Origin: Falsiroseomonas oleicola
GTDB lineage: Bacteria > Pseudomonadota > Alphaproteobacteria > Acetobacterales > Acetobacteraceae
Direction: 5' to 3'
Assembly: GCF_019029495.1 (NCBI RefSeq)
Contig: NZ_JAERQM010000001.1
Span: 744,001 to 808,000 of the forward strand
Length of the DNA: 64,000 nucleotides
Below the pieces are notes generated by a model. The model saw nothing but the letters and a program-made list of their open reading frames with translations, was not told the DNA's origin and searched no databases. A program made the translations under genes and the position numbers. Each line of letters starts with the position of its first letter. The first letter of the stretch is position 1. Below, piece after piece: positions 33,902 through 41,143 of this stretch.

Positions 33902-36268
33902 CTACGCCATCCAGACATCCTGCGAGGCCGCGGCGGGCTCGTCGTCCTCGAAGACGAAGATCGCCTCCGTGATATCGGCCAGTTCGACATTGCGCAGCAG
34001 CACGGAACCACCCGTCCTGGCGAAGTCGAGCCGCGTATGGCTGCCCAGACCGACCAGCGCCGCCATGATCGCCGCCACATCCGTGAACAGGTCGCTGGCG
34101 TCGATCCGATCCATGGTCAGGTCGAAATCGGTGATCAGGTCGTGGCCGGTACTCTCCTTATTGAAGCCGAACAGATCGGCCCCGGCGCCGCCGATCAGCG
34201 TGTCGTTGCCGGCGCCTCCGCCCAGCGTGTCCGCGCCCTCCCCGCCCAGAAGCCGGTCGTCGCCGGCCTGGCCGAGCAGGATGTCGTCGCCCGCGCCGCC
34301 CGTCAGCGTGTCGCCACCGCCGCCGCCGTAGATGGTGTCGTTGCCATCATGCCCGGCCAGAAGGTTGGCCAGCGAATTGCCCGTCAATGTATTGCCGGCC
34401 GCATTGCCAAAGCCCTGAGTGGCGAAGCCGACCAGGGTCAGGCCCTCGAAATGCTGTTGCAGGCGGAAGTTGAAGCTGACGAGCACGGTGTCGAAGCCCT
34501 CATCCGCATATTCCCGGATGCGGTCGCCGGCATCATCCACCCGGTAGGTGTCATCGCCGAGCCCGCCGAACATGCTGTCATTCCCGGCGCCGCCCACCAG
34601 CAGGTCGTTGCCATCGCCGCCATAGAGCCGGTCATCGCCATCGCCGCCGTAGAGAAAGTCGTCACCCGCATTGCCATCCAGCCGGTCATTGCCGGCGAGA
34701 CCCGCCAGATTGTCGTTGCCGGCGCCGCCGGTCAGGAAGTTGTCGAAGCTGTTGCCCTCGATGCGGTTGGACAGGTCATTGCCATGACCATAGGCGGCGC
34801 CGGCGGCCTCGGTCAGGATCAGCACTTCCAGATTCTGGCCGAGGCGGTAGCCGGTGCTGGCGAGCACCGTGTCCAGGCCCTCCCCCGCCAGTTCCAGGAT
34901 ACGGTCCAGCCTGTCATCGACCAGATAGGTGTCGTTGCCGGTGCCGCCGATCATCAGGTCGATCCCGGCGCCGCCTTCCAGCGTGTCGGCGCCGGCCAGC
35001 CCCATCAGCGTGTCGGCACCGGCGCCGCCGGACAGCCAGTTGGCGGCCTGGTTGCCGCGCATCCAGTCATTGCCGCCGCCACCGATGACATTCTCGATCA
35101 GCGCGCGCGGGTCGTCCTCATGCAGAAAGGCATTGTACAGGTTGCGCTGCGCCATATGGGTTCCGGGCACCGCCCCGGTATTGGCCGGCGTCAGATCCAC
35201 CAACTGATCCGTCGAGAGGATGGAGCCCTCGCCCGGCGTCAGGTCGATGCGCAGGCCATTGGCATAGGCCGAGAGGTCATAGGTATCGATGCCGCCGCCA
35301 TCCCAGATGGTCAGCAGGATGCGGTTGGCCCCCGGCGCGCCCTGGCCGATGCCATCGACGAAGACCTCACCGGTCGCCGGGTCGAAGCGGTAGGTCGTGT
35401 TGCCGGAATTGGTCGCGTAATTCGCGCCATAGATGTGCTGCAGGGCGCGGATGTCATGCGTCATCCAGCTCTGCGGCGATTCGTAGCTGCCGGCGACGGG
35501 CTGGTCGTCGACATGGCCGCCGACCGGCATGCGGTAGGACATATTGGTGAATTCGATGCTGTGCCAAGCATCCGGCATCTGGAACACCTGCCCGCCGGGC
35601 CGTGCGTTGGCGGAATGCGGATGCGACAGGCCGAGGGCATGGCCAAGCTCGTGCATGATGACATGCCAGGAAACGCTGCCCACGACGGGATCCAGCAGCC
35701 CGCCCGGGCCGCTCACGAAGGCTTCGCTGGACAGCCAGGTATCCCCGCCGCGGTAGCCGGGGCCGAAGTCCGCGACCTGCACCGGGTCGAATTCCTCGAT
35801 CCCCGGGAAGCCGCCGATGCCGAACAGGCCAGGCAGGCTGGTGGCCGCGCCGAAGCGAAGTGTCGCGCCTTCCAGATCCTCGGTGCGGCTGAGTTCGAGG
35901 TTGGTGAAAGCCGCGAGCGAGGTCAGGCGCTGCTGCTGCCCACCCGGCAGGTCGGACTCACCTGTCAGGATCAGGTCGAGGGCGCGGGTCAGGGACGGGG
36001 TCGGCGTCTCCAGCGCATCGGCCGCACCGCTGATGAAGGCGTCGCCCCAGGCGGCGCGGTCGACCGGCAGTGCATAGGTCAGGCTGCCGCTGGTCCAGCG
36101 CGTGCCCGCGAGGAGCGAATCGATCGCTGCCTCGCCGGTGAAGAACACAGGCGCCCAGTCGCGCTCCGGCGCTGGGGCCGCAACGGCCGAGGCGGAAAAG
36201 CCCGCCGTCACGTGCTGCGAGGCGACTTCGAAAACGTTCAGGCCAGCAGCCCCGCATATCACGCACAT
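33902..36268 (-). CDS. Serralysin-like secreted RTX metalloprotease
   Basis: This 788-residue enzyme belongs to peptidase family M10B. The catalytic zinc motif is HELGHALGLSHP (His206, His210, His216), and the Met-turn follows (FTNMSYRMP). The C-terminal 400 residues are calcium-binding RTX nonapeptides (GGAGNDTLIGGAGADLFG type) in at least three blocks broken by short linkers. No Sec signal peptide is present, as expected for type I export, whose signal lies in the C-terminus. The start is supported by a GGAGGGGG ribosome site. Unlike many serralysins it begins with two Cys (MCVICG). The nearest ABC/HlyD exporter is at 21.5-25.0 kb, and no inhibitor gene is adjacent. Confidence 0.93.
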   Translation of the reverse strand: MCVICGAAGLNVFEVASQHVTAGFSASAVAAPAPERDWAPVFFTGEAAIDSLLAGTRWTSGSLTYALPVDRAAWGDAFISGAADALETPTPSLTRALDLILTGESDLPGGQQQRLTSLAAFTNLELSRTEDLEGATLRFGAATSLPGLFGIGGFPGIEEFDPVQVADFGPGYRGGDTWLSSEAFVSGPGGLLDPVVGSVSWHVIMHELGHALGLSHPHSANARPGGQVFQMPDAWHSIEFTNMSYRMPVGGHVDDQPVAGSYESPQSWMTHDIRALQHIYGANYATNSGNTTYRFDPATGEVFVDGIGQGAPGANRILLTIWDGGGIDTYDLSAYANGLRIDLTPGEGSILSTDQLVDLTPANTGAVPGTHMAQRNLYNAFLHEDDPRALIENVIGGGGNDWMRGNQAANWLSGGAGADTLMGLAGADTLEGGAGIDLMIGGTGNDTYLVDDRLDRILELAGEGLDTVLASTGYRLGQNLEVLILTEAAGAAYGHGNDLSNRIEGNSFDNFLTGGAGNDNLAGLAGNDRLDGNAGDDFLYGGDGDDRLYGGDGNDLLVGGAGNDSMFGGLGDDTYRVDDAGDRIREYADEGFDTVLVSFNFRLQQHFEGLTLVGFATQGFGNAAGNTLTGNSLANLLAGHDGNDTIYGGGGGDTLTGGAGDDILLGQAGDDRLLGGEGADTLGGGAGNDTLIGGAGADLFGFNKESTGHDLITDFDLTMDRIDASDLFTDVAAIMAALVGLGSHTRLDFARTGGSVLLRNVELADITEAIFVFEDDEPAAASQDVWMA

Positions 36269-38157: not shown

Positions 38158-39168
38158 ATGTCCTCCAGCCGCCGTGCCCTGTTGGGCGCCGCCGGCGGGG
38201 TGGCCGCGCTCGCCGCCACGCCCGCCTTCGCCCAGCGCGAAGCCCCCGGCCGCTATCCGGACCCCTCCATCGAGGTGCTCGATCCCAGCTTCAACCGCTA
38301 CCGCCTGGTGCTGGCGGCGGTGGAACGCCTGGCCACCGGCTTCCGCTGGAGCGAGGGGCCGGTCTGGTTCGGCGACCAGCGCTGCCTGATCTGGTCCGAC
38401 ATCCCCTCCAACAAGATGATGCGCTGGAGCGAGACGACCGGCCGCGTCGACGTCTTCCGCGAACCCTCCAACAACAGCAACGGCAATACCCGCGACCGCC
38501 AGGGCCGCCTCATCACCTGCGAGCATCTGACGCGGCGCGTGACCCGGACGGAGCTGGATGGCCGCATCACCGTCATCGCCGACCGCTATGACGGCAAGCG
38601 GCTGAACAGCCCGAACGACGTGGTGGTGAAGTCGGATGGCAGCATCTGGTTCACCGACCCGCCCTTCGGCATCCTCGGCTTCTATGAGGGCGAGCGGGCG
38701 GAGCCGGAGCTGCCGACCAACCTTTACCGCGTGGCGCCCGATGGTCGGATCAGCGTGGCCACCGGCGATGTCGGCCGGCCCAACGGCCTCGCCTTCTCCC
38801 CGGATGAGCGGATTCTCTATGTGGTGGAGGCGGCGGCGACGCCGCGGGTGATCCGCGCCTTCGACGTCGGCGATGACGGCCGCCTCTCCAACAGCCGCGT
38901 CTTCCACCAGTGCAGGGAGGGTGAGACGCCGGACGGCTTCCGCGTCGATGTCGACGGCAACCTGTGGTGCGGCTGGGGCATGGGCACGCCGGAGCTGGAT
39001 GGCGTGCGGGTGCTGAACAAGGACGGCGCGCCGATCGGCCATATCCGCCTGCCGGAACGCTGCGCCAATGTGACCTTCGGCGGGCGCTTCCGGAACCGGC
39101 TGTTCATGCCGGCGAGCCGGTCGCTCTACAGCCTTTATGTGAATACGCAGGGCGTGGCCTACGGGTGA
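38158..39168 (+). CDS. SMP-30/gluconolactonase-like protein with Tat signal
   Basis: This 336-residue six-bladed propeller lactonase or esterase of the SMP-30/LRE family has a twin-arginine-like leader (SSRRALLGAAGGVAALAATPAFA), so it acts in the periplasm. Metal/substrate motifs: SEGPVWFGDQRCLIWSD, LNSPNDVVVKSDGSIWFTDP, GRPNGLAFSPDERILYVVE, and PDGFRVDVDGNLWC. Gluconolactonases open sugar lactones. This version may act on another lactone. It starts after a GGAA ribosome site. A hairpin lies 10 bp past the stop. Confidence 0.9.
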   Translation: MSSSRRALLGAAGGVAALAATPAFAQREAPGRYPDPSIEVLDPSFNRYRLVLAAVERLATGFRWSEGPVWFGDQRCLIWSDIPSNKMMRWSETTGRVDVFREPSNNSNGNTRDRQGRLITCEHLTRRVTRTELDGRITVIADRYDGKRLNSPNDVVVKSDGSIWFTDPPFGILGFYEGERAEPELPTNLYRVAPDGRISVATGDVGRPNGLAFSPDERILYVVEAAATPRVIRAFDVGDDGRLSNSRVFHQCREGETPDGFRVDVDGNLWCGWGMGTPELDGVRVLNKDGAPIGHIRLPERCANVTFGGRFRNRLFMPASRSLYSLYVNTQGVAYG

Positions 39169-39177
39169 GGGTCGGTT

Positions 39178-39201
39178 CCTCCCCCGCGCATGCGGGGGAG
39201 G
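39178..39201 (+). terminator. Hairpin after the SMP-30-like gene
   Basis: Perfect 10-bp arms CCTCCCCCGC/GCGGGGGAGG enclose a GCAT loop, 10 bp after the stop. There is no U-run. It also marks the boundary just before the duplicated aldolase fragment. Confidence 0.6.
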
Positions 39202-39213
39202 CCCTTGCCGGCA

Positions 39214-39326
39214 TCAGCCGCGGGCGATCGCGACCTGCGCCTTGGCGGCGGTCAGCATCAAGCCGCTGTCGTTCATGATGGTCGCCAAGTTAAAGCCCCG
39301 CCCGAACATCTCTTCGAATAGGCACC
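39214..39326 (-). pseudogene. Duplicated 3' end of the HpcH/HpaI aldolase gene
   Basis: This stretch matches 40388-40501, the last 37 or so codons of the aldolase gene, in the same orientation, with about eight differences, among them one missing C near 39311. It has the same TCA (stop) at its end and no start, so it is not expressed as an enzyme. It is one side of a direct repeat around an AT-richer segment, either the displaced original end of the aldolase gene or the rest of a second aldolase. Confidence 0.8.
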
Positions 39327-39543
39327 ACTTCAAGCGCATATCCCATAGTCACACTATCACGTGGCAAAATTTTCGTTACTTGTGTTATATTCGAAATATT
39401 GATGCCCGAGGCTTAGATTTATTCTCCGCCACTTTGATGGTTTGATCTATTAAGGTCGCAATATATGCTCCGAGATTAGAGCGGAAGCTCAATTTCGGGC
39501 AATTATCGCGCATCCACTTCGCGGAAAGGCGGAATATCCTTTG

Positions 39544-40203
39544 TCACTCCGGCTTCCGCAGCCTCGCCTGTTGTAGCATGCGCCTGCCGAACTCGCACAT
39601 TTTTTGCCTGGAAGCTCCAATCAAGGGAAATTTTTCGGCCGCTCGCATCCTGGCTTCGAAATCCGGCGCGTCTTTCCACCAATGAATACGCCAAGATTGA
39701 ATGATTCCATAAAATACCATCATCTCATCCGACAAATCACCAAATAACCGCCGATAGCTGTGAACCGCCGTATATATTGTTATCGTAATATATTCTATTG
39801 AGAAACTGTTCTCAATATTAATATCTGATGAGCTGTGTTTTAGAAAATTATATGGATGCAGCAGGGCTTCGAAGATTTCACCTTCCAATTCGGGCGAGAT
39901 GTCAGCTATTTTTAACAATCTACGCAAATCGTTCAGCCCAACCTCTGGCTTTCCACCCGAAAGTGTAGCCATGATCTCGGTCGCAGCGCTGGCGAGTAGA
40001 TGGGCTGGTATCGGGTCTTCGTCGACGAGGAAAAGCCGAATCGCCGCGTTAATCTCAGTCCGGCAGATTTCTCGTCGATTGAGCCGTAGGTATTCAAGGC
40101 TTGGGTTGTCATCAGCGATTGGCAGAGTCGCTCGCTGATCAAGCGACAGACGCCGCTTCTTTCCTTTCAAGGGCGCCCTCTCACCCACCATCACCCGCCA
40201 CAT
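39544..40203 (-). CDS. Protein of unknown function on a low-GC insert
   Basis: The 219 residues are all predicted soluble and mostly helical. Visible features: a basic N-terminus (LKGKKRRLSL), RTEINAAIRLFLVDEDPIPA, HLLASAATEIMATLSGG, and a central HPYNFLKHSSSD. From memory, a widespread unnamed bacterial family carries a similar 'A..LF....DPI..H.L..AA..I' plus 'NF.KH...D' pattern, but I cannot name it. Codon use is clearly AT-richer than in neighbours, indicating recent transfer. The ATG at 40203 has no strong ribosome site. Defence or toxin roles would be guesswork. Confidence 0.75.
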   Translation of the reverse strand: MWRVMVGERAPLKGKKRRLSLDQRATLPIADDNPSLEYLRLNRREICRTEINAAIRLFLVDEDPIPAHLLASAATEIMATLSGGKPEVGLNDLRRLLKIADISPELEGEIFEALLHPYNFLKHSSSDINIENSFSIEYITITIYTAVHSYRRLFGDLSDEMMVFYGIIQSWRIHWWKDAPDFEARMRAAEKFPLIGASRQKMCEFGRRMLQQARLRKPE

Positions 40204-40351
40204 GCTTCTGTGAAGGAAGTGCCCATACCAAAAATTGCAGTAAGGCTGCCAGCCATAGCAGCCTCGCAGTGGCAGTCATGGCAGGAATCGCCGTCATTCC
40301 GGCACGCCACTGAGCGACGCATCACGGTGATCCAGCATAGAGACTACCAGA

Positions 40352-40379
40352 GACAGGGGCCGAAGCCCCCGTCCCTGTC
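40352..40379 (-). terminator. Stem-loop after the aldolase gene
   Basis: Outer arms GACAGGG/CCCTGTC with an inner GGC-CGAA-GCC hairpin lie nine bases past the aldolase stop. It has the form of an intrinsic terminator without a long U-tract. It may belong to the incoming segment, as the displaced aldolase end lacks it. Confidence 0.55.
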
Positions 40380-40387
40380 GCGGAGAC

Positions 40388-41143
40388 TCAGCCGCGCGCG
40401 ATCGCGACCTGCGCCTTGGCGGCGGTCAGCATCAGACCGCTGTCGTTCATGATGGTCGCCAGGTTGAAGCCCCGCTCGAACATCTCCTTCGAATAGGCGC
40501 CGGTCATGGTGTGGATGCCCACCTTCACGCCATGCGCATGGGCGGTGGTGCGGATCTTGTCGAGCACCGCCAGGAACTCCGGCTCCCGCCGATCCTGCAA
40601 GGGCGCCATGCCGAGCGACAGACTGAGGTCGGACGGGCCGATATAGATGGCGTCGACGCCGGGGACGGAGACGATGGCTTCCAGATTGTCGAGCGCCGTC
40701 TTGGTCTCGATCATCGGGATGACCAGCACATCCTCATTCGCCGCATTGGTATCGGCCGCGGCGCCATACATGCCGGAGCGGATCGGGCCGAAGCTGCGCG
40801 TGCCCTTGTTGGGGTAGCGGCAATAGGACACCAGGGCGCGCGCCTCGGCTTCCGTGTTCACCATCGGGCAGATCACGCCCTTGGCCCCGCCATCCAGCAC
40901 CTTGCCGATGATGCCGGGCTCGTTCCACGGCACGCGCACCATGGGGGTGACGCCATGCGGCTGCATGCCCTGGAAGCAGGCGACCATGGACATGTAGTCC
41001 TGCACGCCATGCTGGATATCGACGGTCAGGCTGTCCCAGCCGGCCAGGGCCATGACTTCCGCGGTGAAGCCACTCGGGATGGCGAGCCACCCATTCACCA
41101 CCGGCTTGCCTGCTGCCCAGGCTGCCTTGACGCCATTTGCCAT
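40388..41143 (-). CDS. HpcH/HpaI-family 2-oxo-acid aldolase
   Basis: This 251-residue class II aldolase cleaves 2-keto-3-deoxy sugar acids or 4-hydroxy-2-oxo acids. The family pattern is intact: DSLTVDIQHGVQDY, TPMVRVPWNEPGIIGKVLDGGAKGVICPMVNT, the metal-binding Glu in IPMIETKTALDNL, and YIGPSDLSLSLGM with the catalytic Asp. A strong AGGGGGAA lies upstream of the ATG. The final 37 codons also occur as a separate fragment at 39214, so the end of this gene may have been supplied by an incoming element. The gene is divergent from an FAD-linked dehydrogenase. Confidence 0.92.
   Translation of the reverse strand: MANGVKAAWAAGKPVVNGWLAIPSGFTAEVMALAGWDSLTVDIQHGVQDYMSMVACFQGMQPHGVTPMVRVPWNEPGIIGKVLDGGAKGVICPMVNTEAEARALVSYCRYPNKGTRSFGPIRSGMYGAAADTNAANEDVLVIPMIETKTALDNLEAIVSVPGVDAIYIGPSDLSLSLGMAPLQDRREPEFLAVLDKIRTTAHAHGVKVGIHTMTGAYSKEMFERGFNLATIMNDSGLMLTAAKAQVAIARG

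What the first reader, a model, noticed from the sequence alone, without database searches (positions are those of the whole stretch)
39214..40501. Low-GC insert bracketed by a 113-bp duplication of the aldolase gene end
The last 113-114 bp of the aldolase gene, stop included, occur twice in the same orientation (39214-39326 and 40388-40501, about eight differences). The 1.06 kb between them is strikingly AT-richer and holds one unknown gene. Insertion at the 3' end of a gene with the element carrying a replacement end is the mark of site-specific integration, yet no integrase is seen. The insert may be a very small passenger or a remnant.
Basis: partly seen in the sequence, partly recalled or inferred. 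Interest (0 to 1): 0.7.

Follow-up and report, generated by a model that had tools for sequence, protein, structure and literature searches.

The report
Integration footprint at aldolase gene end
A short stretch of foreign DNA carrying one plasmid-type gene of unknown function lies at the end of a bacterial enzyme gene, between two copies of that gene's end, as expected if a small DNA circle had recombined in there and left a working replacement end and a broken old one.

Summary
Confirmed: the last 113/114 bp of the aldolase gene occur twice in direct orientation (39214-39326, 40388-40501; 7 substitutions and one 1-nt deletion). It is the only direct repeat of 45 nt or more found in the window and brackets the window's only patch under 58% GC. 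The 219-aa gene inside has no named family; close relatives (53-58% identity) are on Rhizobium/Agrobacterium plasmids, one gene away from a tyrosine integrase. New: six of seven substitutions are synonymous, so both ends diverged in working genes and copy A died recently, the e14/icd pattern. The nearest relative, G001, has the same neighbours and the same unique terminator, but a different single gene between them and 14 bp of the A-type end. Best reading: Campbell-type integration at the aldolase 3' end, now without integrase (CIME-like). Not shown: an empty site with these neighbours, an integrase, or recurrence (1 of 144 family genomes with a tail match). The terminator shared with G001 can equally mean that the intact end is native, so a decayed second aldolase gene is a live rival. 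The kind of event is known; the site and the different cargo in sister species are modest novelty.

The parts
40388..41143 (-). HpcH/HpaI-type aldolase gene, intact, 251 aa
   Evidence: PF03328 E 1.6e-33; orthologues in all 14 genus relatives held
40388..40501 (-). Copy B: working 3' end of the aldolase gene (element-borne in the favoured model)
40352..40375 (-). T1: terminator-like hairpin core after the aldolase stop, one copy here and one in G001, none in 13 other genus genomes
39327..40346 (.). AT-rich insert
   Evidence: GC 0.43-0.56 in its parts against 0.70 for the window
39544..40203 (-). 219-aa cargo ORF; no named family; relatives on rhizobial plasmids
   Evidence: GC3 0.53 against 0.885-0.948 for five neighbouring genes
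39214..39326 (-). Copy A: second, frameshifted aldolase 3' end (displaced original end in the favoured model)
39178..39201 (.). Terminator-like hairpin of the convergent SMP-30 gene, 12 bp from copy A's stop codon
   Evidence: sequence; 22 of 24 nt alike in G001
38158..39168 (+). SMP-30/gluconolactonase gene, convergent neighbour
   Evidence: PF08450; beside the aldolase only in G000 and in G001, the latter 1 of 20 relatives' loci examined

Best explanation
A small circular DNA, or a larger element since reduced, carried its own copy of an aldolase 3' end and recombined once within that end (Campbell-type), most likely by a site-specific recombinase acting in trans or since lost. The aldolase kept its reading frame by taking the element's end (copy B, followed by terminator T1). 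The original end (copy A) was pushed about 1.06 kb away, to lie against the terminator of the convergent SMP-30 gene, where it is now frameshifted. What remains between is one plasmid-type gene and no mobility gene: a CIME-like remnant or passenger. Shown: the repeat, the foreign composition, the plasmid relatives, the synonymous bias and the recent death of A. Inferred: the crossover, its enzyme, and which end is foreign.
For: Only repeat of its size found and only AT-rich patch in the window, with matching borders. A against B: 6 synonymous and 1 nonsynonymous substitution, P 0.001-0.002 if neutral; dS 0.28, dN 0.012, so A worked until recently. This is the e14/icd pattern (165 bp, 12 exchanges, intact frame; passage in PMC11148124). 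A ends 12 bp before the SMP-30 terminator, a normal convergent layout. The cargo's relatives stand one gene from a tyrosine integrase on plasmids. G001 has 14 bp identical to the A-type end at the corresponding place. No aldolase body sequence was detected in either interval.
Against: T1 is shared with G001 right after the aldolase stop; if it is vertical there, B and T1 are native and a Campbell crossover cannot be right. Nothing marks B as foreign: B is 0.939 identical to G001's tail, the gene body 0.927. No integrase match within about 430 kb on the contig; the rhizobial integrase had no match in this genome (no positive control). No empty site with these neighbours. One second tail among 144 family genomes with a tail match. 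Core site not defined.
Confidence: 0.48

Rival explanations
1. Decayed second aldolase gene: the ancestor of G000 and G001 had two aldolase genes in tandem before SMP-30. The second (A-type) was recently overrun in G000 by foreign DNA that removed its first 640 bp or so, and was lost earlier in G001, with another gene in its place.
For: Explains T1 as vertical, the long functional life of A and the A-type scrap in G001.
Against: One aldolase hit in each of the 20 relatives' loci examined, at E 1e-20 (two of the loci are under 4.3 kb). No body remnant found: insert of G000, 28 of 300 shuffles reach its score on the same strand and 72 of 300 on the other (best sub-part 17 of 300); G001 interval, 141 of 300 control windows reach it. 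Needs two independent losses of the body, each with a foreign gene in its place.
Confidence: 0.22
2. Same topology through ordinary homologous recombination: a plasmid or circle that happened to carry the last 113 bp of an aldolase gene integrated by one RecA-type crossover.
For: Gives the same product and needs no integrase; none is near.
Against: The tail pattern was not found in viral contigs; the plasmid aldolase hits listed are diverged homologues at 66-70% identity (20 of 48 records listed, 5 unlisted ones are at 80-90%). A carried fragment that is just a gene end is typical of att sites.
Confidence: 0.15
3. One-sided import: foreign DNA already holding the insert and a sister species' aldolase end joined downstream of a native B-T1 through illegitimate recombination.
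For: Agrees with T1 being vertical in G000 and G001; A belongs with B and G001 by identity but is about 6% different from B.
Against: Needs illegitimate joints and a chimeric donor; does not explain the A-type scrap in G001 or the close fit of A to the SMP-30 terminator.
Confidence: 0.1

Closest known systems
Cryptic prophage e14 in the E. coli icd gene
   Same: A gene's 3' end is duplicated (165 bp, 12 exchanges, two conservative replacements); the upstream copy keeps the frame and the far copy is a dead fragment (passages of PMC11148124 and PMC6379469).
   Different: e14 is 15 kb and has an integrase gene (same passages); here about 1 kb, one gene, no integrase, and the target is an aldolase gene.
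CIME (cis-mobilizable element)
   Same: Insert between two att-like repeats without integration or transfer genes; definition read in a passage of PMC5704250.
   Different: No ICE or IME parent, no tandem partner and no mobility shown; only about 1 kb.
Integrase - 291-aa ORF - 209-aa ORF trio on rhizobial repABC plasmids
   Same: Its 209-aa ORF is 53-58% identical to the cargo gene.
   Different: Neither the integrase nor the 291-aa neighbour is in the insert; here chromosomal; gene GC 0.49 against 0.55 in Rhizobium sp. CG5.

Membership tests
CIME (cis-mobilizable element) | Retained attL and attR | tested here: inconclusive
   113/114-bp direct repeats at both ends; that they are att sites is not shown
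CIME (cis-mobilizable element) | No integration or transfer genes left | tested here: met
   Only ORF of note has no such family
CIME (cis-mobilizable element) | Derived from an ICE or IME | not tested
   No parent element identified; plasmid relatives of the cargo only
CIME (cis-mobilizable element) | Can be moved in cis or in trans | not testable with these tools
   Needs an excision or circle assay
e14/icd-type gene-end replacement | Target gene keeps its frame and length beside the insert | tested here: met
   251-aa ORF intact, C-terminus like the orthologues
e14/icd-type gene-end replacement | Displaced gene end at the far side, differing mostly by silent changes | tested here: met
   6 of 7 substitutions synonymous
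e14/icd-type gene-end replacement | Integrase gene in the element | tested here: not met
   None in the insert; nearest PF00589 match on the contig about 430 kb away
e14/icd-type gene-end replacement | Empty site in relatives | tested here: inconclusive
   13 genus relatives have a single end but other downstream neighbours; the one with the same neighbours (G001) is also occupied

The most novel reading that the evidence does not exclude
A family of very small passengers without integrase uses the aldolase 3' end as its site: members share one end module (aldolase tail plus terminator T1) but carry different single genes in sister species (a plasmid-type gene in G000, a methyltransferase in G001), moved by a recombinase encoded elsewhere.
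Probability: 0.15. Interest if true: 0.6.

Novelty: new member of a known kind. Interest (0 to 1): 0.35.

Why it matters
It is a clean small case in which the age of an integration can be read from silent and non-silent changes in the displaced gene end. It also marks a chromosomal spot where two sister species hold different single genes between the same two neighbours. If both are real integrations, an unknown recombinase uses the end of a metabolic gene. As an isolated remnant it is of ordinary interest.

Tried and rejected
Tandem duplication followed by neutral decay: not favoured, since 6 of 7 substitutions are synonymous. My first run of that test counted 7 of 8 by mistake; one search has the corrected figure.

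tRNA or tmRNA target: none in the window. RNA family at the locus: none at gathering score. Promoter and terminator scan: counts near those of shuffles.

Cargo function: nothing in Pfam (E up to 0.1) or PADLOC (E up to 1); NCBIfam E 0.05, below its cut-off, and PHROGs E 0.19, both taken as chance. No solved relative by sequence at E 1. The structure model from two sequences has mean pLDDT 53.8 and Foldseek gave no PDB match at E 0.001 or better, so no fold is claimed.

Sources of the insert: no DNA match in PLSDB plasmids; cargo protein not found in phages or viral contigs; aldolase tail pattern not found in viral contigs.

A weak whole-length likeness of the aldolase body to the G001 interval (2 of 300 shuffles reach it) looked like a decayed gene, but 141 of 300 genomic control windows reach it too (those controls were not cleaned of real aldolase windows, the median is 32 against 33 observed).

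Methyltransferase relatives in the family (16 of 299 genomes at E 1e-40): the 14-mer is absent from the three such loci examined (3 of 16).

Full report
Observation. The aldolase gene (PF03328, minus strand 41143-40388) ends in a 114-bp stretch that recurs as 113 bp at 39214-39326 in the same orientation. The repeat search reported no other direct repeat of 45 nt or more in the 64-kb window, and the genome has no third strong match (next E 0.014). Between the copies the GC falls to 0.43-0.56 by part, against 0.70 for the window; 400-bp windows under 0.58 occur only here. One ORF of 219 aa lies inside (GC3 0.53; five neighbouring genes 0.885-0.948).

What the insert carries. The 219-aa protein has no Pfam or PADLOC family and only chance-level matches in NCBIfam and PHROGs. 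Of 52 pattern-matched stretches in the genome collection two encode a relative: Rhizobium sp. CG5 (58%) and a 40-residue match in a Flavobacteria MAG. Of 72,556 plasmid records 6 match, all Agrobacterium, Rhizobium or Neorhizobium, at 53-58%. In the five contexts that I read the gene stands divergently beside an ORF of about 291-308 aa, with a tyrosine integrase beyond it; four are annotated repABC plasmids, and the fifth (L031) has the same ORF order, its rep genes being named by eye. The integrase of L031 matches PF00589. In the window's own family 6 of 397 genomes match, this one included, the other five weakly (24-40% identity); in the class 2 of 385 at E 1e-6, this one included. So it is a patchily distributed, plasmid-associated accessory gene. 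Its function is open; the structure model is too poor to use. My guess, from its company alone, is a plasmid-maintenance or conflict role.

The two ends. A and B differ by seven substitutions, six of them synonymous, and by one deletion in A. Random change would make 24% of substitutions synonymous (28% with transitions weighted threefold), so P is 0.001 to 0.002. dS between A and B is 0.28, like that between this genome and G001 for the aldolase gene (0.29); SMP-30 gives 0.37 and GlcD 0.39. Had A been dead since the G000/G001 split, 12-16 nonsynonymous changes would be expected against 1 seen. So A and B are ends of two aldolase alleles that both worked for long, and A died recently. Integration of an element with its own gene end predicts this, as known for e14 in icd (passages). 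A decayed second gene predicts it too.

The nearest relative. G001 has the same convergent pair, aldolase and SMP-30; this adjacency is in none of the other 19 relatives' loci examined (loci of 3.7-17 kb). After its aldolase stop it has the same terminator T1, whose core (up to one mismatch) occurs once in each of these two genomes and in none of the 13 other genus members. Then comes a different single gene, a SAM methyltransferase (PF13649; its interval has host-like GC of 0.64). Then, before the SMP-30 terminator, come 14 bp identical to the A-type tail, not to the B-type or to G001's own, in the same orientation. Other off-tail 14-mer matches to A or B appeared twice in 696 kb (both strands counted), which gives a chance near 2e-4 for the 62-bp stretch and near 0.005 for the whole interval on both strands; the stretch was chosen after seeing the match. 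With strict gaps 0 of 2000 shuffles reach the score; with cheap long gaps 23 of 2000 do. A second, 24-nt partial likeness in the same stretch, out of order, was reached by 19 of 2000 shuffles for B and 12 of 2000 for G001's own tail. I take the scrap as suggestive, no more.

Models. In a Campbell-type event the native downstream DNA must follow the displaced end A, so T1 must be element-borne; T1 in G001 then means that a related element sat there too. If T1 is simply native, B is native, and A is the rest of a second aldolase gene or an import. For the Campbell model: the compact layout at A (12 bp to the SMP-30 terminator), no aldolase body remnant detected in either genome, and a single event needed here. 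Against it: the need for related elements in both genomes; no PF00589 match within about 430 kb on the contig (on the same contigs of the 14 relatives the nearest is about 92 kb from the aldolase, several of those contigs being short); no empty site; and one second tail among 144 family genomes with a tail match, 397 searched at E 1e-4 (strongly diverged tails would be missed). The gene gives no sign that B is foreign: B is 0.939 identical to G001's tail, the body 0.927. I hold the Campbell model with a recombinase in trans or lost at 0.48, the same topology by plain homologous recombination at 0.15, the decayed second gene at 0.22, and one-sided import at 0.10.

Known kinds. It works like e14 in icd but has no integrase, so it is not filed as a prophage or island. 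CIME is the nearest name (definition read in a passage of PMC5704250); its parent and its mobility are untested. A search for papers holding three of four terms (HpcH HpaI aldolase, genomic island, integrase, attachment site) found 331 and listed 10, none of these ten with the aldolase term; that is no proof that the site is undescribed. Islands in other protein genes such as dusA, yicC and trmE are well known (passages of PMC8409611; abstract of PMC4482086 in the listing).

Noticed in passing
[quoted passage not shown] its ORF looks like a methyltransferase or cephalosporin-hydroxylase type protein (recalled, not searched). The locus seems to take up single genes.
   Followed up: partly
L031:5793-8621; L047-L050: A conserved trio on rhizobial plasmids: tyrosine integrase, a divergent ORF of 291-308 aa and a 209-aa ORF, most often near repC, without known function.
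   Followed up: partly
L042:1471-2049: A distant relative of the cargo protein (27% identity) in another genus of the family lies next to a small helix-turn-helix-like ORF that resembles an excisionase (recalled, not searched), as if the wider family also rides on integrative elements.
   Followed up: no
window 33902-36268 (-): 788-aa protein with RTX calcium-binding repeats and a serralysin C-terminal domain match (PF00353, PF08548).
   Followed up: no
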